Under the pieces are notes generated by a model, which was not told the DNA's origin, made no database searches, and worked only from the letters and a program-made list of their open reading frames with translations. A stretch of DNA of 64,000 nucleotides from NCBI RefSeq assembly GCF_026226615.1, contig NZ_JAJAPB010000007.1:62001-126000 (forward strand). The letters run 5' to 3'. The stretch's first letter is position 1, and the number at the start of each line of letters is the position of its first letter. This document shows positions 47,074 through 61,269 of this stretch, one piece after another. Origin of the DNA: Geovibrio ferrireducens (lineage in GTDB: Bacteria; Chrysiogenota; Deferribacteres; Deferribacterales; Geovibrionaceae). The position numbers and the translations under genes are program-made.

Positions 47074-47418
47074 GGGGGCGATTGGTTTCGACGGGGAATC
47101 GTAGGTCCTGGGAGCATGCCGAGGTCGGCACCTCGTTAATTAGCCGGCAAATAGTAACTGCAAACGAAGAATTTGCACTCGCTGCTTAATTGACGGCGAC
47201 GCACAGAGCGAGGCCTGCTCACGGCTGACCCGAGTGCGCCAAACAATAGTGAGCCAAGACCTTTGAACCGCCTTGCGCAAAGGGACTGAAACCTAAAGGC
47301 TTACTTTAAATCATAGCTGTCTGTGGCTGAGATTTAAGGGACACCTGATCACAGAACAAGCATGTAGCGCCTTCGACTGTAAGTTTTTCGGACGCGGGTT
47401 CGATTCCCGCCGCCTCCA
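47074..47418 (+). ncRNA. ssrA: Transfer-messenger RNA (tmRNA)
   Basis: The 5' end GGGGGCGATTGGTTTCGACG and the 3' end GCGGGTTCGATTCCCGCCGCCTCCA form the tRNA-Ala-like acceptor and T arm. The tag frame starts at GCA (47160) and reads ANEEFALAA followed by TAA (47187-47189); with the Ala from the charged tmRNA the tag is AANEEFALAA. The terminal CCA is not encoded. smpB is encoded nearby. The last 16 bases double as the left attachment site of the following island, which restores a complete ssrA. Confidence 0.97.
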
Positions 47419-47419
47419 T
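47403..47419 (+). other. attL of the tmRNA island (17-bp direct repeat)
   Basis: ATTCCCGCCGCCTCCAT at the 3' end of ssrA recurs exactly at 60584-60600. The repeat spans the 3' strand of the T stem and the acceptor strand, the classic crossover for tmRNA-targeting integrases. Confidence 0.92.
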
Positions 47420-47493: not shown

Positions 47494-49167
47494 ATAAAGT
47501 CCAAATACCTTCAATTTAATACTTCATGCTTCTACTTTAGAAAGCGCATACCGCTTGATATGATTAATACGCTCGGACGCAGGGAAATAAAATTTTCTCT
47601 TGATTCAAGCGACTTATTGTATTCAAATACTCTTGCGAATGTATATAATTATTCCATTGAAAAATTCTTTAAGCAGGTAAGAATGTTCGGACTATTAAAA
47701 CCAGAGCTAAAAGAGCTTGTCTGCAGGTATTTTTGGGATAATGTACCACGATTAGGCTCTATTGGACTTTCTATAAATAATCAAAATCAAAAAGAAGGTA
47801 ATTTAGAACGTTTTCTCGTGAACTTCCAAGATATAATTAATGTTAAGATTGACCGAGAACACTGCCCTTTTATTGTTGGTGGAGATAAAGGTGAGGGTGT
47901 TACGGAATATTTAGAAAAGAACGGGATAATAGTAAACAATAAAGACTATCAACACCGAATGCTCTACAAATATTGTAGTGATGTCAATAAAGATCTTGCA
48001 CAGCTTTTCCTCAACTACTCTAATGGAAATTATGACAACACTCAATTTGAGAAAAAATATGGAACACCACACGAGATAGTTTTAGATAAAAATAACGAAA
48101 CAGAGATTAAGCATTCAAGATTTGAGCAACAAAAACCTTATATGCTTTCTGAAGCAATTAAAGCCTATATTAATGAAAGCAAAGCATCGGGCATAACCGA
48201 TAAAAGCATCAGTGAATATAGCTCTGCTTTGGAGCTGTTTATTCGTATACAGGGTGATTCGGACGTGACAGCTATAACCAGAGAACAGCTTGTAAAAACA
48301 AAAACAATCCTTGCCAAGCTTCCGCCTAACCTGAACAAGAAAACTGCCTATAAAAATAAATCTATAGAACAAATTATACGCCTGAAACATAAGCCTGTTT
48401 CCCAGACAACCTTAAATAACTACATGATAAGGATTTCGCAGCTTTTCACATGGATGGAAAAATACGGCAAAATCCAGACTAACATAGCCAAAGACCTGAC
48501 TACTAAAATCAAAACCTCAAACAGGGATTTCAGAGAAGTTTTCAGTGATGACATGATAACCGCTTTTTTCACCTCATCAGAATATCTCACCACAGATAAA
48601 CCCGAAAACCACTGGATACCTCTCATTGCCTTATTCTCAGGTATGAGACAAAACGAAATATGCCAGCTTTACGTTGACGATATTAAAAACAAAGAAGGCG
48701 TGTATTACTTTGATATAAACAGCAAGCAGGATAAGCAGCTAAAAAACAAATCTGCCGAACGCATGATTCCCATTCATCAGACTCTCATTGACCTCGGCTT
48801 TATAACCTATCTTGAAGCATGTAAGGCTAAAAAACATACCCGCCTGTGGAAGAACCTTCTAAAAGGCAGAGACGGGTACGGAACAGCTTTCAGCCAGAGA
48901 GTCAACCGCCTTATAGATAATGTGGTTACAACCAACAGCAAAGTTAATTTCCACTCATTCAGGCATACTTTCGCAAACCAGATGAAACAGACAAGCGGTA
49001 TTGACCTTAATATAATCGAAGAACTGCTCGGACACTCCAGAGGTTCAGAAACTGCTGACAGGTACGGCAAAGCATACGAGCCAAAGGTTTCCTTGCCCGA
49101 AGTAAACAAGTTACGTTACAGCTTCGATTTTAGCCTCTTAAAAGGTAAGCTTTTATTGAAGCTGTAA
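47494..49167 (+). CDS. Tyrosine recombinase (tmRNA-island integrase), probable non-ATG start
   Basis: The first in-frame ATG (47560) would cut off part of a conserved N-terminal segment. The frame is open upstream and encodes KSKYLQFNTSCFYFRKRIPLDM, typical of integrases whose N-terminus reads YLxxx..YYFRxRIP. The ribosome site AGGAG (47482-47486) is 7 nt before an ATA codon at 47494, which I take as the likely start (557 residues). Catalytic residues are intact: ALFSGMRQNEICQLY, HSFRHTFANQM, LLGHSRGSETADRYGKAY. If the ATA start is inefficient, the integrase is poorly expressed or starts at 47560 in a shortened form. Confidence 0.88.
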   Translation: MKSKYLQFNTSCFYFRKRIPLDMINTLGRREIKFSLDSSDLLYSNTLANVYNYSIEKFFKQVRMFGLLKPELKELVCRYFWDNVPRLGSIGLSINNQNQKEGNLERFLVNFQDIINVKIDREHCPFIVGGDKGEGVTEYLEKNGIIVNNKDYQHRMLYKYCSDVNKDLAQLFLNYSNGNYDNTQFEKKYGTPHEIVLDKNNETEIKHSRFEQQKPYMLSEAIKAYINESKASGITDKSISEYSSALELFIRIQGDSDVTAITREQLVKTKTILAKLPPNLNKKTAYKNKSIEQIIRLKHKPVSQTTLNNYMIRISQLFTWMEKYGKIQTNIAKDLTTKIKTSNRDFREVFSDDMITAFFTSSEYLTTDKPENHWIPLIALFSGMRQNEICQLYVDDIKNKEGVYYFDINSKQDKQLKNKSAERMIPIHQTLIDLGFITYLEACKAKKHTRLWKNLLKGRDGYGTAFSQRVNRLIDNVVTTNSKVNFHSFRHTFANQMKQTSGIDLNIIEELLGHSRGSETADRYGKAYEPKVSLPEVNKLRYSFDFSLLKGKLLLKL

Positions 49168-49168
49168 A

Positions 49169-49756
49169 TCAGTTAGGTAAACGAATACAGCCATCTTCTA
49201 ATAAGCCAATAACCCCTTCAGGATGTACAAAGAACAAATTATGTAAGGTTCTCAACTCAGTCTTTTTAATAATATACTCTTCGGCTCCCTCAGGTTCCAA
49301 TATTAGTTGAGCATCGAAACCTTTGTCAAAATTAAAAAGACCATCAAATTTTTTCGATTTCAACTTAAGCTTCTCTATTAATCTATTTAACCCGTCCCCA
49401 TACTCTTCACGACGCTCAAGCAATAAATGAAAATGCATATTACCATTTACTTGTTTTTCGACAGAACCAATACCATTCATACCTTTTCCTGTTTTTCTTA
49501 TTGATGATGAAAATAATAATTCATTTGTATATCGAATTAATTTCCCTAAGTTATTAATAAGAATTCTACTGCTAATATTTCTAGTAATAGTAATTGTTAT
49601 GAATGCACCATTAAAATATTCAGGTCTTTGCTCTATTAGATATTCTTTAATTTTCATTTGTGGTTCAATAATCTCTGAGTTGTACTTATTCAAATAATCG
49701 TAACCTGTAAAATAATATCTCCTTCTTGTATCTTCTGTTGTTTGTTCTCCTCTCAT
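49169..49756 (-). CDS. HUH-endonuclease-like Rep protein
   Basis: 195 residues. The pattern of rolling-circle initiators is visible: motif 1 AFITITITRN (about 51-60), motif 2 HFH in NGNMHFHLLLE (His108, His110) and motif 3 YIIK (Tyr161, Lys164). Such single-Tyr HUH proteins nick single-stranded DNA for replication or mobilisation. The ribosome site AAAGGGAGATA precedes the ATG. The 5' half and upstream region are tandemly duplicated (49812-50217). I do not recognise the specific family; the assignment rests on the three motifs. Confidence 0.5.
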   Translation of the reverse strand: MRGEQTTEDTRRRYYFTGYDYLNKYNSEIIEPQMKIKEYLIEQRPEYFNGAFITITITRNISSRILINNLGKLIRYTNELLFSSSIRKTGKGMNGIGSVEKQVNGNMHFHLLLERREEYGDGLNRLIEKLKLKSKKFDGLFNFDKGFDAQLILEPEGAEEYIIKKTELRTLHNLFFVHPEGVIGLLEDGCIRLPN

Positions 49757-50217
49757 TATCTCCCTTTCTTAATATAATTACGAGAATCTGTGCGAGGACA
49801 GATCTCTCCCATTCACGACGCTCAAGCAATAAATGAAAATGCATATTACCATTTACTTGTTTTTCGACAGAACCAATACCATTCATACCTTTTCCTGTTT
49901 TTCTTATTGATGATGAAAATAATAATTCATTTGTATATCGAATTAATTTCCCTAAGTTATTAATAAGAATTCTACTGCTAATATTTCTAGTAATAGTAAT
50001 TGTTATGAATGCACCATTAAAATATTCAGGTCTTTGCTCTATTAGATATTCTTTAATTTTCATTTGTGGTTCAATAATCTCTGAGTTGTACTTATTCAAA
50101 TAATCGTAACCTGTAAAATAATATCTCCTTCTTGTATCTTCTGTTGTTTGTTCTCCTCTCATTATCTCCCTTTCTTAATATAATTACGAGAATCTGTGCG
50201 AGGACAGATCTCTCCCA
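49406..50217. repeat. 406-bp exact tandem duplication
   Basis: Unit 1 (49406-49811) and unit 2 (49812-50217) appear identical base for base, with a 2-bp TT microhomology at the junction. Each covers the N-terminal about 117 codons of the HUH-like gene plus its ribosome site and upstream region. The lack of divergence points to a recent event (or an assembly artefact). Confidence 0.92.
49686..50162 (-). pseudogene. Truncated duplicate of the HUH-like Rep gene
   Basis: From the ATG at 50162, about 117 residues repeat the N-terminal part of the neighbouring protein, including motif 1 and the HFH motif. The frame then crosses the duplication junction and runs 41 unrelated codons (starting WERSVLAQ) into the copied upstream region before stopping. 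Tyr161 and Lys164 equivalents are missing, so it cannot be a working HUH nuclease. It could still bind DNA and act as a dominant-negative form. Confidence 0.8.
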
Positions 50218-53353: not shown

Positions 53354-53965
53354 TTATTGTCCGTTGTATCTTTCAAAACCTTTCTTGAACCCTTCAGGAG
53401 CATCGTAAAAACCACTTGTATATTGAGATAGACACTCTTTATGAAATTGCAGAAAAGCTTCAGGATTAACATTTTTATGCCCCCTATTCCTGCATATAAT
53501 CTCACTTTGCATATGTTCAGGAACAGCAATACCTTTTTCACCGAAATAAAAAAAATTATCTGAAATTAATACACGATCCGTACTGGTATCTTTTTCAAGA
53601 TTTTTATTATTCACAGTCCCATCTTCATTACTATGATGGGAGTCTGCTTGGTACCATATTCCAGAATTATGGAAGTAAATATTATCTCCATACATTTTCT
53701 TGAGACTTGTATTCATATCAGGCTTTTTATCACTGTAAACAGGATTTGACCAGTACTCATTAAAAGTAATTTCGTTGGTAATTCTCATGCAATAAATAAG
53801 TTTGTTAGCACATTCAGAATTTACAGAGCCATTACCAAGTATCCAATCACCAATACATGCTAACCGCCTTATCTCTGGTTTGCATGTTGCCAATGTACAA
53901 TAACCGAAGAAAGGATTAGGAGCAAAGCCGTAGTCACGTTTAACTATATAAGCAAAAACTTTCAT
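53354..53965 (-). CDS. Nmad2-like nucleotide-modification-associated protein
   Basis: 203 residues from the ATG at 53965, chosen because AGAGGA is 8 nt upstream; an ATG at 53971 is too close to it. The N-terminus VFAYIVKRDYGFAPNPFFGYCTLATCKPEIRRLACIGDWILGNGS is the hallmark of the Nmad2 family, predicted by comparative genomics to work in base-modification and conflict systems. Conserved His/Asp/Asn-rich patches follow (YFHNSGIWYQADSHHS). Biochemistry unknown. Last gene of the operon; it overlaps the TIR-like gene stop by 1 nt. Confidence 0.75.
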   Translation of the reverse strand: MKVFAYIVKRDYGFAPNPFFGYCTLATCKPEIRRLACIGDWILGNGSVNSECANKLIYCMRITNEITFNEYWSNPVYSDKKPDMNTSLKKMYGDNIYFHNSGIWYQADSHHSNEDGTVNNKNLEKDTSTDRVLISDNFFYFGEKGIAVPEHMQSEIICRNRGHKNVNPEAFLQFHKECLSQYTSGFYDAPEGFKKGFERYNGQ

Positions 53966-54441
53966 CAACATATTCCTCTAACAGGTTTATGAGGATTCTG
54001 ATAACAAGAACTATCAGGGTTAGACCATGAATTATCTTTACCCTCTATTGCATCAATTATCTTATCTGAGTTCCATCCGATTAAAGCATCCCCGTAGTAT
54101 TTAAAACTTTCAGGAAGCTCCGCATCAGTACAACCTCTGATATAAATTCCGACAACACGTTTTCCTTCTTTTTGGGCATACTTAATTTCCCAGTCAACAT
54201 AGTCTCTTGTGTGGGTTTTGTCTCCAATGAGAACAATCACCGTTCCTGCCCAGTCAACCCCAGGTTTTAATATTTCATTTTTTATGTATTGTTCGTTAGA
54301 AGCATTGTTGGGCTTGGTGCTATCAATAGAACTGTTTCTTAGCTCATAACCCTTGCTAGCAAGTAAATTTTTTAAATCAGAAACTGAACTATCGTCTTTT
54401 CCATGATGGCTAATAAAGACATTTTTTTTTCGAGAAGGCAT
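53965..54441 (-). CDS. TIR-like (MTH538/ThsB-type) protein 1
   Basis: 158 residues. KNVFISHHGKDDSSVSDLKNLLASKGYELRNSSID (strand 1 and helix A of a TIR-like fold), TVIVLIGDKTHTRDYVDWEIKYAQKEGKRVVGIYI with the conserved W-E pair, and ALIGWNSDKIIDAI. This is the DUF1863/MTH538 class that includes ThsB of Thoeris, which makes NAD-derived signals. No ThsA partner exists in the window. It is encoded between the thymidylate-synthase homologue (16 nt upstream) and Nmad2. Confidence 0.82.
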   Translation of the reverse strand: MPSRKKNVFISHHGKDDSSVSDLKNLLASKGYELRNSSIDSTKPNNASNEQYIKNEILKPGVDWAGTVIVLIGDKTHTRDYVDWEIKYAQKEGKRVVGIYIRGCTDAELPESFKYYGDALIGWNSDKIIDAIEGKDNSWSNPDSSCYQNPHKPVRGIC

Positions 54442-54457
54442 GTTGTCCTCCTAAAGT

Positions 54458-55468
54458 TCATTTTTGAATATTCCGTATGTACCAATTATTCCACATTTTT
54501 TTTAAGAGATTATTTGAACAAGAAAGTACAGCATCATCCATTTCGGCCAACCAACCATGTCTTCTTGCGCAATCAGCAGCAACAATGCAAAGTAGATTTT
54601 TATATCCATATGGTAGAGATTGCGAATTGTATACTTTTTTCAATTGGTTTCTCTTAAACTCAGGATTGATCATTAAATTTAGATTGTCAATTACATTCTT
54701 AAGGACACTATCCCATGAGTTTTTTGAGATAGAAAGGCTATCTGTATTTTCGACATATTCTGATAATTCATTTTGTGAAAAAACTATTTCCTGTAAATCC
54801 TTTTTGTAGATATGGAGCGAATCGCAAACAAGACAATATTTACCAGGCTCCAAATCTAACCAACCAGCAAGAATTTCTTGTATAGAAGTAAATTGTACAA
54901 TGTTATATGGAGTTCCTCGATAAAAATCGTTACTACGCATAATCTGTAGCCAATCAAGCTTTCCATCACGAACTTTAAGCATAGAACAAATATTACAAGG
55001 TATATCCTCTGAGCGTGGTTGACCATCAGATAAAGGCATATCTGTTCTTGGATCCCATATTTGTAAAACTACCTGTCGTGAATCAGGGTTATTTAGCAAT
55101 ACATGGTAAGCTCTCTCAATTTGATCAAACCCAAATTGTTTTCTAAGTCTAAAACCATAAGCTCCATAATACTCGTCTGAATTACCAGAATACTTAGGTA
55201 GTGCAGGGTTCCAATAATTCAAGACCTTGGCTTCATTTGAACCAGACATTATGACAAAGAGTTCGACAATTGCAAAAGCAGGATTAACAGCGGGCTGCCT
55301 AGCGTAGATCCACCGCTGCCGCGGGTTATTAATATTAAATGATACATGCTGGAGCTCAATAGTGTCTCCAATCCGAGAGCCTTGTGGTTTGCCACAACCA
55401 TGAAAAAATAAACTTGCTGCTTCTTGCCACACACGATTTGCATCATTATCGGAAAAGCTATTTTGCAT
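54458..55468 (-). CDS. Thymidylate synthase-family enzyme (dUMP methylase or hydroxymethylase)
   Basis: 336 residues. The ThyA core is clear: catalytic Cys158 in EDIPCNICSML, RSND at 178-181, and Asn189 in GTPYNIVQFT. The spacing Cys158-Asn189 (31) matches E. coli ThyA Cys146-Asn177. Keeping Asn rather than the Asp of dCMP hydroxymethylases points to dUMP as substrate; CDSLHIYKKD supplies the His/Tyr pair. The flanking sequence and C-terminal 90 residues diverge from housekeeping ThyA. In this context it more likely makes a modified thymine precursor. It begins immediately after the upstream gene's stop. Confidence 0.85.
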   Translation of the reverse strand: MQNSFSDNDANRVWQEAASLFFHGCGKPQGSRIGDTIELQHVSFNINNPRQRWIYARQPAVNPAFAIVELFVIMSGSNEAKVLNYWNPALPKYSGNSDEYYGAYGFRLRKQFGFDQIERAYHVLLNNPDSRQVVLQIWDPRTDMPLSDGQPRSEDIPCNICSMLKVRDGKLDWLQIMRSNDFYRGTPYNIVQFTSIQEILAGWLDLEPGKYCLVCDSLHIYKKDLQEIVFSQNELSEYVENTDSLSISKNSWDSVLKNVIDNLNLMINPEFKRNQLKKVYNSQSLPYGYKNLLCIVAADCARRHGWLAEMDDAVLSCSNNLLKKMWNNWYIRNIQK

Positions 55469-56443
55469 TTAAAACTCTCTTTTCATTTTGGTATTAATCC
55501 CCCATCTTGGAGGGTAGAAGTAGTCAATTGGTTCAAGATTCCTTTTATATTGCTGTTTAATTCTAGTTCTGCCTGTTATAGCAGAATATTCAGGAAAAGC
55601 TGCTCTTGTGTATTTATCGACCTCGCAAAATATATTCTGGCAATCAATCAACTTTAAGTCTCTTCCCCATAGTGTTTTGAACGCCAGTCCATATTTTTGA
55701 AATTCTCTATCTTGATTATCAACCATATATTTAATAACATCTTCAAAAGAATATCTTCCAATATCAGCAAAACATTTTCTGATACCATTAATTGCTCCTG
55801 GCCCAGCAACAACAAAATCATTCTCATCAAAGTTTATAATATTGCTATAATTTAAATCAATTGTGTACTGAAATGCTAAAAACTTGCCCAATCCAGGGTA
55901 CGCTAATAAGTGGTTGAATACATCTCTCAAACTTTTTGCATTTGCAATTTTTTGGGGTAAATCATCATTAATCATCTTCTTCAATAAATTTAAGTGTGAA
56001 ATATGCTTTTCCTTGTATCTCTTATCACCAGCATATGAAGGCATAATATAAGCTGCAGAATATACAGTATTACCAATAACTCTGTAATTAGAAAGGGCGG
56101 TCGAGAATTTCTCAACATCAAAACAAGATAAACAAATAGTTGGAAAAATAGAATTTAAATATTCCCAAGTTTCTATTTTGTTAAAAAGTTTGAATAGTAT
56201 GATTCTAAAAAAGAGCTCATTTATTTCTTGTGACCCTTTATAAATTATTTCTTTTATAAGGTATTGGCTTACTCTATCAGAAGCCCTGTAAGTATTAGTA
56301 AATTTATATTTTTTTAGAATAGAGTCATTTATAAGTATTTCATCAAACCCATTGTATCTTGAAAAAAAAATCTCCTGTCTTTTTTGCGCAAAAATCCAAT
56401 AATATTTGTATATATCAGATTGTGTTAGAGTTGATATTGTCAC
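55469..56443 (-). CDS. Alpha-glutamyl/putrescinyl-thymine pyrophosphorylase-like (HMUDK helical-domain) protein
   Basis: 324 residues, all-helical, with YKFTNTYRASDRVSQYLIKEIIY..ELFFRIILFKLFNKIETWE, then a HhH-glycosylase-like segment YPGLGKFLAFQYTIDLNYS and GPGAINGIRKCF. This matches the helical, DNA-glycosylase-related domain of 5-hydroxymethyl-dU DNA kinases and thymine pyrophosphorylases described for thymine hypermodification. No P-loop kinase domain is fused. By inference it acts on 5-hydroxymethyl- or pyrophosphorylated thymine in DNA or nucleotides. It overlaps the dCTP-deaminase-like gene by 4 nt. Confidence 0.7.
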   Translation of the reverse strand: MTISTLTQSDIYKYYWIFAQKRQEIFFSRYNGFDEILINDSILKKYKFTNTYRASDRVSQYLIKEIIYKGSQEINELFFRIILFKLFNKIETWEYLNSIFPTICLSCFDVEKFSTALSNYRVIGNTVYSAAYIMPSYAGDKRYKEKHISHLNLLKKMINDDLPQKIANAKSLRDVFNHLLAYPGLGKFLAFQYTIDLNYSNIINFDENDFVVAGPGAINGIRKCFADIGRYSFEDVIKYMVDNQDREFQKYGLAFKTLWGRDLKLIDCQNIFCEVDKYTRAAFPEYSAITGRTRIKQQYKRNLEPIDYFYPPRWGINTKMKREF

Positions 56444-57168
56444 TGATTATTTCCCGCTATATTTTGTTTTAATTCTAATATTTGATTGTCTTTTCGACCC
56501 TGAGATAACTCAATTGTTTGTTCAGGAGAATCCTTGCGACTCATAGAACTTACGATGAAAGTTGCAATCACTGTCGCAATAACTGTAGTGAAAATTAATA
56601 TGATATATTTAAAAGTCTTTTCAATAGATGTTAGTCTTTTATCAAGTGCCGCAGGAGATGCCATTTTGCTATTGTTTTTTTTTACATCAAGATCAGATAT
56701 GCCGTTTTGATGGGCATGCTCTCCGTTATACATGCACCTGGTCTGTCTATCTAAATCTGCAAACCAGATCATAAACAATGGTTTCCCTTGAGTAATTGGT
56801 ATAGGTTCACTACCTGCATTGTATACAGCAAATTTCAACTGTCCCTCAAATCCAGGATCAACATGAAAACCAGATACATTTACTAACCCAGAAAACTTAA
56901 CACCTGCTTTTATCGAAATAAGTCCAATGGCATCACAAGGAATTTTTACGACTTCGGACGATATTAATAAAGCAAATTGGCCAGCAGGAATTGAAAACTG
57001 CTCATTTTCATCTAATACACGCTTAACATCTCCATTTGAAGTAATAAAAATTTCATGGCCAACATTAAGCTCATATGACGCATATTTTATGTTTCCAGGT
57101 TCAAAAGGGGTAACGATATTCTCATTTTCGATTCTTGACAATATTTTCTCAGAACTCCAGAAAGACAT
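56440..57168 (-). CDS. Membrane-anchored dCTP-deaminase/dUTPase-fold protein
   Basis: 242 residues. Residues 1-150 show the trimeric dCTP deaminase/dUTPase fold: YELNVGHEIFI, GLISIKAGVKFSGLVNVSGFHVDPGFEGQLKFAVYNAGSEPIPITQGKPLFMIWFADL. When aligned on DPGxxG and YN, the catalytic Glu of dCTP deaminases (VLEFYN) falls on Ala114, while the Asp of DPGF is kept. Residues about 185-208 form a membrane helix (FKYIILIFTTVIATVIATFIVSSM), unusual for this family. It may bind or hydrolyse a nucleotide at the membrane rather than deaminate dCTP. Confidence 0.75.
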   Translation of the reverse strand: MSFWSSEKILSRIENENIVTPFEPGNIKYASYELNVGHEIFITSNGDVKRVLDENEQFSIPAGQFALLISSEVVKIPCDAIGLISIKAGVKFSGLVNVSGFHVDPGFEGQLKFAVYNAGSEPIPITQGKPLFMIWFADLDRQTRCMYNGEHAHQNGISDLDVKKNNSKMASPAALDKRLTSIEKTFKYIILIFTTVIATVIATFIVSSMSRKDSPEQTIELSQGRKDNQILELKQNIAGNNQ

Positions 57169-57198: not shown

Positions 57199-58569
57199 TC
57201 ACCCTGCAAATATATTATCTAAACGTAACTCAACATCTGTCCTGTTTTGATATTTACATACGTTGATAGCTTGGGAATATATGGAAACCATTTCTCTTTG
57301 GTTGAAATCTAATGTTCGTACCTCACCATAAAGTGTTAACGCATTTTCAACCTCACCTAAATATAAATAAGCTTCTGCTTCTGTTGCTTTTCTCCATCGG
57401 TCATTATAATTTTGCCCATGAATATTTTTTAAAATTTCTTCAGCTATTTCTTTGGCCTTTGCAGTATCATCTTTAAAAACCATTTCTAAAAAAGCGATAT
57501 TAATTCCTGAATAGTTTATTTGTGAATAATCATTTTTCTTTTGCGCAATATCGTACGCTTTTTTATAATGTTCTAATGCTTTAATTGCAGTATTTATGCT
57601 TTGAGTACTTAACCACTCCCGTTTATATCTACCGGCTAATGTACCAATCAAATCAGTATCAAATGTTGTACCGAATCGACCTTCAAGAATACTTCTTGAT
57701 TTGATAAAATCACCCATGGCATCAAAAGCCAGAGCCAAATTAACTAACTCGCCATCAGTTAAATAATCAATTATAGGGTAATAATCTTCAATAAGGCGTT
57801 TGTAATAAATATACTCGGAAATAGCTAACCCAGGATTCGTGCTTATATCCACTTGGTTGTCACCGACAATCAGATCTAAAACAATATCAAGACTTTGCCT
57901 TGAAGACGGAATTGGTCTAATCATTTTTGTATGATTGCCTACTGTATACCTGTGGTAACTATCTTTATAACAATTTAAAGATGACTCTCTCGGAACAAAA
58001 GTATCATCAAGTCCTGCAACAGTGACGAATTTGAATGGAGTATTCTCTTTGTAAAGCTCATTCCACGATTCTCGCAGATCTTTGATAAAGGAACTGCCAG
58101 AATACATTTCTTGAATTTGCTTTTTTATTAAATATCCAATAATTGCTTTTTTTAAACCGTTACTTGGAGTACCAAACATACATATAGTCTTAGTTTTTTC
58201 AAGCACATCGTTGCAAATAGGGGTATCTGTCGTAATTAATTTTTGTAAAATTAATCCCCCCATACTATGGGCAACAAAATGCAATTCAGTATATTTATTT
58301 AATCTAGTACAAATCTCCTTTTCGATGTAGCTGCAGATCGTATTAATACTCGGTTCTGATGACCAAAGAGGTATATCAATTTTGTAAGAAGATGGGTACC
58401 CAATGCCAAATATATCGTAAGAGTCAACTGAAGGGATTAATTTCAAGAATTCAACAAAGTCACGCCATGTACTATTGACATCACCCGTAAAACCATGAAT
58501 AAACACAATTGCTTTTCGATTGTTCTTATTCCTAAATTCATATATAAAATCCAAAAGAACCCCCTCCAA
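57199..58569 (-). CDS. Alpha/beta hydrolase fused to TPR repeats
   Basis: 456 residues. The N-terminal 250 form an alpha/beta hydrolase: oxyanion region IVFIHGFTGD, nucleophile Ser102 in VAHSMGGL, acid Asp188/189 in AGLDDTFVP and His213 in VGNHTKM. The set resembles lipase/PGAP1-like or palmitoyl-thioesterase-like enzymes. Residues about 255-456 are helical TPR-like repeats (LVNLALAFDAMGDFIKSRSIL; YLYLGEVENALTLYGEV). The active site is intact. By inference the hydrolase is the effector (lipid or thioester) and the TPR part the docking or sensing region. Confidence 0.8.
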   Translation of the reverse strand: MEGVLLDFIYEFRNKNNRKAIVFIHGFTGDVNSTWRDFVEFLKLIPSVDSYDIFGIGYPSSYKIDIPLWSSEPSINTICSYIEKEICTRLNKYTELHFVAHSMGGLILQKLITTDTPICNDVLEKTKTICMFGTPSNGLKKAIIGYLIKKQIQEMYSGSSFIKDLRESWNELYKENTPFKFVTVAGLDDTFVPRESSLNCYKDSYHRYTVGNHTKMIRPIPSSRQSLDIVLDLIVGDNQVDISTNPGLAISEYIYYKRLIEDYYPIIDYLTDGELVNLALAFDAMGDFIKSRSILEGRFGTTFDTDLIGTLAGRYKREWLSTQSINTAIKALEHYKKAYDIAQKKNDYSQINYSGINIAFLEMVFKDDTAKAKEIAEEILKNIHGQNYNDRWRKATEAEAYLYLGEVENALTLYGEVRTLDFNQREMVSIYSQAINVCKYQNRTDVELRLDNIFAG

Positions 58570-58624
58570 GCTATATCATACTGTATATTCTCATTAATGT
58601 TAAAAAATAATCTTACTATTCTAA

Positions 58625-59029
58625 TTAGATAGCATGTTTTCTTATCGCTGCAACGATACTCTCCGTATTCCAATAAACATTTTCTTTCGAGCGACTTGAA
58701 ACAACCAAAGAAATCTTTTCTTGACCACGAGGGATTACCCCAACTATAGGTATGTTATGATTCACTGCGGTCTGAAGTTCCCAATCCATCCAAGTGCTAT
58801 GTGAAGCATACATTCCAGCAATACCTAAAATAATATTGGACTCAGCAATTTTTAAACGAAGAACTCTTTTAATATATTCCGTATTTACTGAATTAATTGG
58901 CTCATTAGGTGAAGCCTCTTGAAAAAAAGTCTTAAAATACCCTCTCTGCTCTAACAAATTTCTAAGGTTGTTTAGGTCGTTGACATAGTCCCATGAGTGG
59001 CTGATAAATACTTTATAAAGATTTGCCAT
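58625..59029 (-). CDS. TIR-like (MTH538/ThsB-type) protein 2
   Basis: 134 residues. YKVFISHSWDYVNDLNNLRNLLEQRGYFKTFF, SNIILGIAGMYASHSTWMDWELQTAVNHNIPIVGVIPRG and YWNTESIVAAIRKH follow the same plan as the other TIR-like protein of this operon, including the W-E pair in MDWEL. The two share only motif-level similarity. It overlaps the end of the upstream TPR gene by 17 nt. It could be an NAD-consuming signal producer or an adaptor. Confidence 0.82.
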   Translation of the reverse strand: MANLYKVFISHSWDYVNDLNNLRNLLEQRGYFKTFFQEASPNEPINSVNTEYIKRVLRLKIAESNIILGIAGMYASHSTWMDWELQTAVNHNIPIVGVIPRGQEKISLVVSSRSKENVYWNTESIVAAIRKHAI

Positions 59030-60251
59030 GAGTACCCTCTCTGATGTTGTCTAAAAGAGTTTTTGTTTGAATATAAGTATTCTTTTCCCAATCTGTATTT
59101 GATAAAGCAAAAAATTTATTTTCATACTCTTTGTACTCAAGATCCAATGAGTATAAAGAGTATGAATAGGTTGCATATATCCATTTCAAATCACTGCGCT
59201 GTTCGTAATCATCCTGTTGTAAGATTGAGGTAATGAGGTTAATAAGTTCTTCTCTTATTTTACGTGACTCAAATCTACAATAAATTTTTTCATTTTCATC
59301 AATTACTTGCATAGATTTAAGCTCCAAACATGTAGCGTAATTTTCACCAGTATAATAATCTTTATTGACCACATATCCTCTCCGATAAAAAGAAATTGCT
59401 TTATCTAAATAAGCAATATCCTTATGAAGAAGATACAGTCGTTTATATATAGCTCCAGTGATGCCAAGTGTTTCAGTATCATTTGTTAAATCAGGTTTAA
59501 GTTTACTTATAATAATGAGGGCATCTTGTAATGCTCCCGCTTTTGAAGGGAATTCACTTTTATATCGAGCAAGAGCATGCTGCTGAATGAAATAAGCCTC
59601 ATCTTCTGCTTTCTCACTCGCTTTACTCCATAGTTTGTATGCAGCTACAAAATTATTTTGATTCATTTCAATCTTTGCCTTTTCAACTATGGCAAAAAGA
59701 TGTTTTTCTCTTTCCGCTAACTCACTCAAAATTTTCCCAAACTCTTCATCGGGTAAAACATAGTGGCAGAGTGAAGGTATAAATTGAAAAAATGGACTAT
59801 CTGTTTCGCAACGTGTTAAAATACTAGTAATCAAAGCGACAAGTTCTTCTTGGCATCGTTTTGCCTCTGATGCGCCAATATCATCACCCAAGTGTTTGTA
59901 TGAAAAAATTTTATTATGACTTAAATCAAATGCTAAACAACCTTGATCTTCTTTCAAAATAATTGTCGAATATGGTCTTGAAGCATGGCGTACACCAAGT
60001 TCATATATAGCATTTGGATTGTAAGTTGAAATATCTGCAATAACCAAATCAGCTCTTATTAAAAGAGCATACATATTCCTATCGATTAGCCCAGACTCTT
60101 GTATTTCATCCCCTCTAACACATATCAAACCTGCTTTTTCAACTGCTGGTTTAATAATGTTTGTGTATGTCATATCAAGATCAAAAACTTTTCCGGTATA
60201 GGTATCAGTTTTCTTACCATAACCCATTATCACAAAACAAAACTTATCCAT
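59013..60251 (-). CDS. Deoxyribosyltransferase/TIR-like domain with TPR (TRAFs-binding-type) region
   Basis: 412 residues; first gene of the operon. The N-terminal about 160 residues contain FCFVIMGYGKK, ICVRGDEIQESGLI and RADLVIADISTYNPNAIYELGVRHA, the pattern of nucleoside-2-deoxyribosyltransferase/TIR-like Rossmann domains that precede TRAFs-binding (DUF4071) repeats. The remainder is helical TPR-like sequence (NNFVAAYKLWSKASEKAEDEAYFIQQHALARYKS...ITGAIYKRLYLLHKDIAYLDKAISFYRRGY). It probably binds a nucleotide and acts as the sensor or scaffold of the system. Confidence 0.78.
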   Translation of the reverse strand: MDKFCFVIMGYGKKTDTYTGKVFDLDMTYTNIIKPAVEKAGLICVRGDEIQESGLIDRNMYALLIRADLVIADISTYNPNAIYELGVRHASRPYSTIILKEDQGCLAFDLSHNKIFSYKHLGDDIGASEAKRCQEELVALITSILTRCETDSPFFQFIPSLCHYVLPDEEFGKILSELAEREKHLFAIVEKAKIEMNQNNFVAAYKLWSKASEKAEDEAYFIQQHALARYKSEFPSKAGALQDALIIISKLKPDLTNDTETLGITGAIYKRLYLLHKDIAYLDKAISFYRRGYVVNKDYYTGENYATCLELKSMQVIDENEKIYCRFESRKIREELINLITSILQQDDYEQRSDLKWIYATYSYSLYSLDLEYKEYENKFFALSNTDWEKNTYIQTKTLLDNIREGTHGKSL

Positions 60252-60583: not shown

Positions 60584-60600
60584 ATTCCCGCCGCCTCCAT
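60584..60600 (+). other. attR of the tmRNA island
   Basis: An exact second copy of ATTCCCGCCGCCTCCAT (see 47403-47419), followed by a similar T-rich stretch. The preceding sequence GTGTTGGCA does not continue the tmRNA T arm, so only the last 16 bases of ssrA are duplicated. Confidence 0.92.
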
Positions 60601-60654: not shown

Positions 60655-61269
60655 TCAGCGGATAATAGATAACGAGCTACTACTTATGACAACAACAGGA
60701 GTGCTTACGGACATATGAGCACCGTAAGAGGAGTAGTTCCCTACATATATGTTTATTCTTCCTTCAAAATGATCCGCAGGCTTCTTTGAAATGATGTTAA
60801 TGACTCCGCCCACGCTCCCCTTGCCGTAAAGCGTTCCTTGAGAGCCCCTGAGTACCTCGACTCTTTCGATATCTTCAAGACCGGGATCGGCGTTCTGATA
60901 GTAATCCATAGGAATGCCATCAACGTAAATAATAACCGGACTGTTTTCGATAAAACCGTTTGTTCCCTTTCCCCTTATTGTAGTGTAGCTTATACTCCCT
61001 ACAAGAGAAGACGTATAAGTGTTTGGAATAATATTCAGAAGCTCCTGTATATTTGTTATACCTGCTTTTTCAAGCTCGCTTCCGGTCATCACAGTCACAG
61101 CAGTTGGAGCTTCTTGAGCATAGCTTTCACGTTTATCAGCGGAAACAATCACGGAATCCAGAACTATAATATCATCATCCGCAGTGGTTTTAGAATCCGC
61201 ATAAGCATCAGCGCAAAACACAAGCACTGAAAAAAATAATGTTAAGAGTGCTTTCCCCCTTAATAGCAT
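60655..61269 (-). pseudogene. Truncated TonB-dependent outer-membrane receptor (signal peptide and plug only)
   Basis: 204 residues. A signal peptide (LLTLFFSVLVFCADAYA) is followed by a TonB-box-like region and a complete plug domain: APTAVTVMTGSELEKAGITNIQELLNIIPNT..TIRGKGTNGFIENSPVIIYVDGIPMDYYQNADPGLEDIERVEVLRGSQGTLYGKGSVGGVINIISKKP. The 22-strand barrel (some 450 residues more) is missing; the frame ends SSSSLSIIR about 55 bp before attR. No continuation is visible in other frames. It was probably a siderophore receptor, given the ABC genes upstream. Confidence 0.85.

What the first reader, a model, noticed from the sequence alone, without database searches (positions are those of the whole stretch)
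53354..57168. Non-phage thymine-modification submodule with an embedded TIR-like gene
The ThyA homologue retains Cys158, RSND and Asn189 at ThyA spacing, so it should act on dUMP and not dCMP. It is translationally linked to a HhH pyrophosphorylase-like protein and, through a TIR-like gene, to Nmad2. In known hypermodified phages ThyA homologues make 5-hydroxymethyl-dUMP and helical-domain enzymes elaborate it. Here no DNA kinase, polymerase or other phage gene is present, so the product may be a nucleotide signal or tag on host or invading DNA.
Basis: partly seen in the sequence, partly recalled or inferred. Interest (0 to 1): 0.78.

Follow-up and report, generated by a model that had tools for sequence, protein, structure and literature searches.

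The report
Thymidine-modifying anti-phage operon with TIR
A bacterial mobile island carries a small operon that probably makes a chemically altered building block of DNA and reads it with an alarm protein to fight viruses; a matching five-gene operon exists in E. coli, where an operon of this gene content was recently shown to block phages by an unknown mechanism.

Summary
In detail: an operon at 57168-53354 (minus strand) encodes a DCD-like membrane protein, an HMUDK_hel enzyme, a ThyA homologue, a ThsB-type TIR and Nmad2. It lies in a 13-kb, low-GC island inserted at ssrA. The host uses ThyX for dTMP, so this ThyA is accessory. It carries the hydroxymethylase Asp three residues before the catalytic Cys, plus the uracil-selecting Asn, as hmdU-making phages do and ordinary TS do not. 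HMUDK_hel models best on the phage 5-phosphomethyl-dU glycinyltransferase PUGT. Nmad2 models as a PUA-like (ASCH/YTH/EVE) modified-base reader. Comparable loci occur in many phyla; all 34 Nmad2 genes in the main locus set sit directly behind a TIR gene (distant stand-alone Nmad2 clades do not). E. coli has TS-dNMPk-HMUDK_hel-TIR-Nmad2, and DefensePredictor (PMC13092281) validated an E. coli operon listing TS, dNMPk, 5hmdUk and NMAD as anti-phage, mechanism unstudied. New here: Nmad2-paired TIRs end in a cysteine (32/33, against 0/55 unpaired TIRs), and the DCD-like proteins lack the deaminase glutamate and are mostly membrane-anchored. Most likely a modified deoxyuridine is sensed by Nmad2 to control the TIR; that step is inferred.

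The parts
47403..47419 (.). left attachment repeat (3' end of ssrA/tmRNA), ATTCCCGCCGCCTCCAT
   Evidence: 17-bp exact direct repeat, only two copies in the window; tmRNA 47074-47418
47560..49167 (+). tyrosine integrase of the island
   Evidence: PF00589 4e-16
53354..53971 (-). Nmad2: predicted PUA-like (ASCH/YTH/EVE-type) reader of a modified base or nucleotide
   Evidence: PF18753 6e-70; AF2 model pLDDT 93.6; Foldseek best ASCH E 2e-3 prob 0.98, VIA YTH Z 8.2
53965..54441 (-). ThsB-type TIR protein with invariant Glu85 and C-terminal Cys158
   Evidence: PF08937 2e-23; PADLOC ThsB 3e-58; Glu85 34/34, C-terminal Cys signature
54458..55468 (-). ThyA-family enzyme with dUMP-hydroxymethylase signature (Asp155, Cys158, Asn189)
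   Evidence: PF00303 7e-23; residue table; best solved relative MilA CMP hydroxymethylase
55469..56443 (-). HMUDK_hel / aGPT-PPlase-type helical enzyme (PUGT-like fold)
   Evidence: PF18723 5e-101; AF2 pLDDT 92.1; VIA best 8z2m PUGT Z 10.3 over 220 residues
56440..57168 (-). DCD-like protein lacking the deaminase catalytic Glu, with a C-terminal membrane segment (about 189-207)
   Evidence: PF22769 1e-15; residue at E. coli Dcd 138 is Ala; hydropathy maximum 2.58 at residue 189
57199..58569 (-). alpha/beta-hydrolase with TPR-S sensor domain; same strand, possibly same transcript
   Evidence: PF20308 4e-11; 30-nt gap to the next gene
58625..59029 (-). second ThsB-type TIR, without the Cys tail
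   Evidence: PF08937 3e-13; ends RKHAI
59013..60251 (-). TPR-S protein with a TIR-like N-terminal domain
   Evidence: PF20308 4e-22; PADLOC TIR effector 2e-9
60584..60600 (.). right attachment repeat of the island
   Evidence: 17-bp exact direct repeat

Best explanation
It is an anti-phage defence operon carried by a mobile island. The ThyA homologue converts dUMP to 5-hydroxymethyl-dUMP. The HMUDK_hel enzyme, with the fold of the phage 5-phosphomethyl-dU glycinyltransferase, displaces the activated 5-hydroxymethyl group to give a hypermodified deoxyuridine derivative; the host Tmk or another kinase would supply the phosphate, because no kinase gene lies in the operon. Nmad2, a PUA-like domain, binds this derivative, free or in DNA, and so holds or releases its dedicated TIR partner, whose NADase-type Glu is invariant; phage replication disturbs the derivative and switches the TIR on. 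The DCD-like membrane protein may be a second reader of a deoxyuridine nucleotide. Shown here: gene set, conservation, active-site residues, predicted folds, pairing. Inferred: the chemistry in vivo, the ligand of Nmad2, the trigger and the TIR output.
For: Host dTMP comes from ThyX and this is the only ThyA in the genome. Hydroxymethylase signature Asp155 and uracil-selecting Asn189, shared by 25 bacterial proteins tabulated and by SPO1-, ViI- and M6-type phages, absent in E. coli ThyA and T4-type td (rule from PMC6400193). PUGT-like fold. PUA-like Nmad2 fold. TIR directly upstream of 34/34 Nmad2 genes in the main set. E. coli ICE-borne TS-dNMPk-HMUDK_hel-TIR-Nmad2 operon, complete in 16 of 16 carrier genomes. 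DefensePredictor tested 94 E. coli units and validated 42, among them units with a thymidylate synthase and a 5-hmdU kinase; its figure legend lists TS, dNMPk, 5hmdUk and NMAD. Neighbours are also immune-type: TPR-S, second TIR. Mobile island with att repeats and 33.6% GC against 48% and 45.5% in the flanks. Nmad2 has no match in 50,697 phage records.
Against: No enzyme activity, base or ligand has been measured. The Nmad2 fold match is weak to moderate (Foldseek E 2e-3, Z about 8), a level that chance arrangements can reach. Nmad2-TIR pairs also occur without ThyA and HMUDK_hel, beside MazG and a uracil-DNA-glycosylase-like protein, so the ligand need not be the ThyA product. E. coli ThyA and HMUDK_hel are only 27-28% identical to these. 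That the validated E. coli system is exactly this operon, TIR included, could not be read from the held text. The TIR is not shown to be an NADase.
Confidence: 0.55

Rival explanations
1. DNA-level system: 5-hmdUTP is incorporated into replicating DNA and elaborated there by HMUDK_hel, as in hypermodified phages. Nmad2 then reads the modified base in DNA, as EVE/McrB-N domains do, either to spare marked host DNA or to detect marked invader DNA, and recruits the TIR.
For: The phage relatives of HMUDK_hel act on bases in DNA (PUGT). PUA-like relatives of Nmad2 in the PDB include DNA-base readers such as McrB-N and THYN1. A UDG-like gene accompanies Nmad2-TIR elsewhere. In some plasmids HMUDK_hel sits beside DnaE/DnaQ-type genes.
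Against: Partner genes are mostly free-nucleotide enzymes or folds: dNMP/TMP kinase-like, MazG, DCD. No nuclease or DNA-binding effector is in the operon, and the host must keep making DNA with ordinary thymine.
Confidence: 0.25
2. Thoeris-like signalling: the TIR is a sensor-cyclase that makes a cyclic ADP-ribose signal, and ThyA/HMUDK_hel/Nmad2 are accessory or counter-measures. The TPR-S proteins would be the effectors.
For: P0002 matches PADLOC ThsB at 3e-58; catalytic-type Glu invariant; a second ThsB-type TIR and two TPR-S proteins lie upstream.
Against: No ThsA (STALD) was found in the genome, although this search had no positive control. Nmad2 is the recurrent partner of this TIR family, and no ThsA gene was recognised in the annotated relatives.
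Confidence: 0.12
3. Ordinary metabolism: the ThyA homologue simply makes dTMP on a mobile element and the rest is coincidental.
For: It is the only ThyA-family protein in the genome, and mobile elements do carry thymidylate synthases.
Against: Trp80, Trp83, Val93, Leu143 and His147 of true TS are all replaced or missing, and Asp155 is the hydroxymethylase signature. ThyX is present. The gene set is conserved across phyla.
Confidence: 0.04

Closest known systems
DefensePredictor-validated E. coli unit with TS, dNMPk, 5hmdUk and NMAD (PMC13092281), most likely the ICE operon TS-dNMPk-HMUDK_hel-TIR-Nmad2 (L111, L112)
   Same: ThyA-family protein with the Asp signature, HMUDK_hel, ThsB-type TIR and Nmad2 in one operon; TIR 45% and Nmad2 43% identical; same TIR-Nmad2 7-nt overlap; same Cys-ending TIR
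   Different: No dNMP kinase here, a DCD-like membrane protein instead; ThyA and HMUDK_hel only 27-28% identical; gene order differs; different phylum; TPR-S/TIR genes upstream
Phage thymidine hypermodification pathways (SPO1 hmdU; ViI and M6 5-substituted dU; PaMx11 PUGT)
   Same: ThyA-family enzyme with identical diagnostic residues; HMUDK_hel/PUGT-type enzyme
   Different: No DNA kinase, phage polymerase or phage structural genes recognised; coupled to TIR, Nmad2 and a DCD-like membrane protein
Thoeris (ThsB TIR)
   Same: ThsB-type TIR domain with conserved Glu
   Different: No ThsA found; partner is Nmad2; C-terminal Cys tail
MilA CMP hydroxymethylase / T4 dCMP hydroxymethylase
   Same: ThyA fold, Asp three residues before the catalytic Cys
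   Different: Uracil-type Asn instead of cytosine-type Asp at the base-reading position; the dCMP-type Ser is Gly here
PUA-like modified-base readers (ASCH, YTH, EVE, McrB N-terminal domain)
   Same: Predicted overall fold of Nmad2
   Different: About 8-10% sequence identity; ligand unknown; dedicated TIR partner

Membership tests
E. coli TS-dNMPk-5hmdUk-NMAD defence unit | ThyA-family enzyme, HMUDK_hel and Nmad together in one operon | tested here: met
E. coli TS-dNMPk-5hmdUk-NMAD defence unit | dNMP kinase gene in the operon | tested here: not met
   DCD-like gene instead; only one Tmk in the genome, elsewhere
E. coli TS-dNMPk-5hmdUk-NMAD defence unit | protection against phage | not testable with these tools
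   reported for an E. coli unit in PMC13092281; this operon untested
pyrimidine (dUMP) hydroxymethylase of the ThyA superfamily | Asp or Glu three residues before the catalytic Cys (Leu in TS) | tested here: met
   Asp155, Cys158 (rule from PMC6400193)
pyrimidine (dUMP) hydroxymethylase of the ThyA superfamily | Asn at E. coli 177 (uracil substrate) rather than Asp | tested here: met
   Asn189
pyrimidine (dUMP) hydroxymethylase of the ThyA superfamily | Ser two residues before the active-site Tyr (T4 dCMP-enzyme signature) | tested here: not met
   Gly102; also Gly or Ala in ViI-, M6- and SPO1-type phage enzymes, so it seems specific to dCMP enzymes
pyrimidine (dUMP) hydroxymethylase of the ThyA superfamily | 5-hydroxymethyl-dUMP formation | not testable with these tools
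   needs an enzyme assay
HMUDK_hel / aGPT-PPlase / PUGT family | match to PF18723 above the curated cut-off | tested here: met
   338 bits against a cut-off of 25
HMUDK_hel / aGPT-PPlase / PUGT family | fold of a solved PUGT | tested here: met
   8z2m best of 467 chains aligned, Z 10.3, rmsd 3.8, 220 residues; only a second look at Foldseek candidates, and helical folds can reach such Z
Thoeris | ThsB TIR | tested here: met
Thoeris | ThsA effector encoded with it | tested here: inconclusive
   no STALD match in the genome, but the search rang in no control; macro-type ThsA was not searched
dCTP deaminase (including the dCTP-deaminase defence family) | catalytic Glu138 (E. coli Dcd) | tested here: not met
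   Ala in P0005; Glu in 0 of 24 relatives
PUA-like (ASCH/EVE/YTH) superfold | structural match of Nmad2 | tested here: inconclusive
   consistent ranking of ASCH, YTH, EVE and McrB-N, but Foldseek E not below 1e-3 and Z about 8
phage-encoded base hypermodification system | located in a phage genome with phage genes | tested here: not met
   integrated island with a tyrosine integrase; no phage structural or replication gene recognised; Nmad2 absent from phage records

The most novel reading that the evidence does not exclude
HMUDK_hel transfers the activated 5-methylene-deoxyuridine nucleotide onto a protein thiol: the C-terminal cysteine of the Nmad2-paired TIR in this type of locus, and the phosphopantetheine thiol of the acyl-carrier-like protein in the alternative ACP-HTH-ImmA-HMUDK_hel loci. 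That would be a nucleotide-protein conjugate, read by Nmad2, that arms or silences the TIR, a mode of immune signalling not described before as far as I know.
Probability: 0.08. Interest if true: 0.93.

Novelty: new variant of a known kind. Interest (0 to 1): 0.62.

Why it matters
An E. coli operon with this gene content was recently shown to stop phages, but its mechanism was not studied. The anatomy here gives concrete, testable assignments: a dUMP hydroxymethylase, a PUGT-like transferase, a predicted modified-base reader, a dedicated TIR with a near-invariant cysteine tail, and a catalytically dead membrane-anchored DCD. If right, enzymes best known from phage DNA hypermodification have been turned by bacteria into an alarm system based on a modified deoxyuridine.

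Tried and rejected
Housekeeping ThyA: rejected, because ThyX is present and the TS residues are lost. Active dCTP deaminase: rejected, because the catalytic Glu is absent. 'TIR always accompanies Nmad2': true in the main set (34/34), but an independent sample of three classes of genomes showed distant Nmad2 clades without TIR (13 of 23 Nmad2 over 170 aa had TIR), so the claim is limited to the close clade. Cys tail as a by-product of gene overlap: rejected, 12 of 13 non-overlapping pairs keep it. Thoeris membership: not established. No PDB sequence relative of HMUDK_hel was found. Library searches for Nmad2 and TPR-S gave no useful paper; the Iyer 2013 and Burroughs 2015 papers, which discuss related domains, are not held, so their predictions could not be compared. 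Promoter and terminator scans were at chance level.
Full report
Observation. The window is part of a 2.97-Mb genome in a phylum for which 51 genomes are held, and only this one has an HMUDK_hel gene. The genes described are real and intact. They lie in an island between two exact 17-bp copies of the ssrA 3' end (47403-47419 and 60584-60600), next to a tyrosine integrase. Its GC is 33.6%, against 48.1% and 45.5% in the flanks. The five genes in the given span, in transcription order on the minus strand, are DCD-like, HMUDK_hel, ThyA-like, ThsB-type TIR and Nmad2. Three further genes (TPR-S protein, second TIR, alpha/beta-hydrolase with TPR-S) precede them on the same strand with short gaps and may share the transcript.

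ThyA homologue. Host dTMP synthesis is covered by ThyX, and this is the only ThyA-family protein in the genome. The nearest solved relative is MilA, a CMP hydroxymethylase. In the T4 dCMP hydroxymethylase study (PMC6400193) the aspartate three residues before the catalytic cysteine activates water for hydroxymethylation, is Leu in thymidylate synthases, and is proposed as the signature of hydroxymethylases. P0003 has Asp155 before Cys158. The same Asp is present in all 25 bacterial proteins tabulated and in four phage enzymes (SPO1-like, ViI-like and M6-like phages plus LuckyBarnes), but not in E. coli ThyA or a T4-type td. The segment with Trp80 is missing, and Trp83, Val93, Leu143 and His147 are replaced in the same way as in those phages, while Asn177 (P0003 Asn189), which selects uracil over cytosine, is kept. 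The best prediction is therefore dUMP to 5-hydroxymethyl-dUMP. The additional Ser of the T4 signature is Gly, as it is in the ViI-like and M6-like phage enzymes (Ala in the SPO1-like one).

HMUDK_hel. The model (pLDDT 92.1) has the fold of HhH DNA glycosylases and of a queuosine salvage enzyme. Its best structural match among the re-aligned candidates is 8z2m, the 5-phosphomethyl-2'-deoxyuridine glycinyltransferase PUGT of phage PaMx11 (Z 10.3, 220 residues). An enzyme that displaces an activated 5-hydroxymethyl group with a nucleophile is the natural reading. The nucleophile is unknown.

Nmad2 and TIR. Nmad2 models with pLDDT 93.6. Its structural matches are consistently PUA-like folds: ASCH, YTH, EVE-type proteins and the McrB N-terminal domain. 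Several of these read modified bases, but the scores are moderate. In 33 loci all 34 Nmad2 genes follow a TIR gene directly on the same strand. Most of these loci were chosen by HMUDK_hel, not by Nmad2. In an independent sample of about 1,150 genomes taken from three classes, 13 of 23 Nmad2 genes over 170 aa had the TIR; the others belong mostly to more distant clades with unrelated neighbours. The paired TIRs keep Glu85 in 34 of 34. They also share a signature that I have not seen described: the last residue is Cys in 24 of 33, and Cys lies within the last five residues in 32 of 33 and in 13 of 13 of the independent sample, against 0 of 55 unpaired TIRs in the same loci.

Context elsewhere. 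The HMUDK_hel search gave loci from many phyla. Clustering shows a common core (HMUDK_hel followed by ThyA, MazG or a radical-SAM protein, often with a thymidylate-kinase-like protein or domain) joined to one of two modules: TIR-Nmad2, or ACP-like protein, HTH, ImmA/IrrE peptidase and a short ThyA-like protein, often with AcpS. The two modules tend to exclude each other (Nmad2 with ImmA in 5 loci, without in 23; Fisher p 8e-6). The carrier serine of the ACP-like protein is invariant (41/41). TIR-Nmad2 also occurs with MazG and a UDG-superfamily protein without HMUDK_hel. DCD-like proteins of these loci lack the deaminase glutamate (0 of 24 have it) and 19 of 24 have a membrane-segment-like stretch; P0005 has both traits, so it is more likely a nucleotide-binding membrane protein than a deaminase.

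Prior work. DefensePredictor (PMC13092281) cloned 94 predicted E. coli units and found 42 protective. Newly validated domains include a thymidylate synthase and a 5-hydroxymethyluracil kinase, and the figure legend lists TS, dNMPk, 5hmdUk and NMAD. The mechanism was not studied there, and the held text does not name a TIR for it. In E. coli I found an ICE-borne operon TS, DNMK-type kinase, HMUDK_hel, ThsB-TIR, Nmad2, complete in all 16 carrier genomes of 5,426. It is very probably that system, and the window operon is a divergent relative: TIR 45%, Nmad2 43%, ThyA and HMUDK_hel 27-28% identical.

Mechanism. The most economical account is a modified deoxyuridine made by ThyA and HMUDK_hel, sensed by Nmad2, with the TIR as output and the DCD-like membrane protein as a possible second reader. 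The free-nucleotide version is favoured because partner genes are free-nucleotide enzymes or folds. The DNA version stays open because phage relatives of HMUDK_hel and several PUA-like proteins act on DNA. The Cys tail and, in the alternative loci, the carrier-protein serine suggest a protein thiol as a partner of the chemistry; this is speculation, weakened by the Cys tail being kept where HMUDK_hel is absent.

Verdict. The operon is a new variant of a recently validated but unexplained defence type, with new anatomical features that make its mechanism directly testable.

Noticed in passing
49406-49705 and 49812-50111: A perfect 300-nt direct repeat (spacing 406) gives two overlapping minus-strand ORFs with identical N-termini and no Pfam match: a recent tandem duplication inside the island.
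   Followed up: partly
57199-60251: TPR-S protein with a TIR-like N-terminus, second ThsB-type TIR and an alpha/beta-hydrolase with TPR-S lie directly upstream on the same strand; possibly a separate immune module or part of the same transcript.
   Followed up: partly
L019-L098, e.g. L030, L055, L063: Widespread operon of ACP-like protein, HTH, ImmA/IrrE peptidase, short ThyA-like protein, HMUDK_hel, MazG and a convergent AcpS, also on plasmids, apparently of unknown function.
   Followed up: partly
L113, L115, L116, L117: TIR-Nmad2 pairs beside MazG and a UDG-superfamily protein, without ThyA or HMUDK_hel: a second nucleotide-metabolism partner for the same TIR-Nmad2 pair.
   Followed up: partly
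L111:15515-19418: E. coli ICE carries a second cassette of TIR proteins (toll/interleukin-1 receptor, two TIR genes, hypothetical) just after the TS-Nmad2 operon; similar cassettes occur near Nmad2 in several other loci.
   Followed up: no
60655-61269: A TonB-dependent receptor plug domain of only 204 aa, apparently truncated, lies just outside the right attachment repeat.
   Followed up: no
L016, L017: Sphingomonad plasmids pair HMUDK_hel with DnaQ-like exonuclease and DnaE genes, suggesting a plasmid replication link.
   Followed up: no
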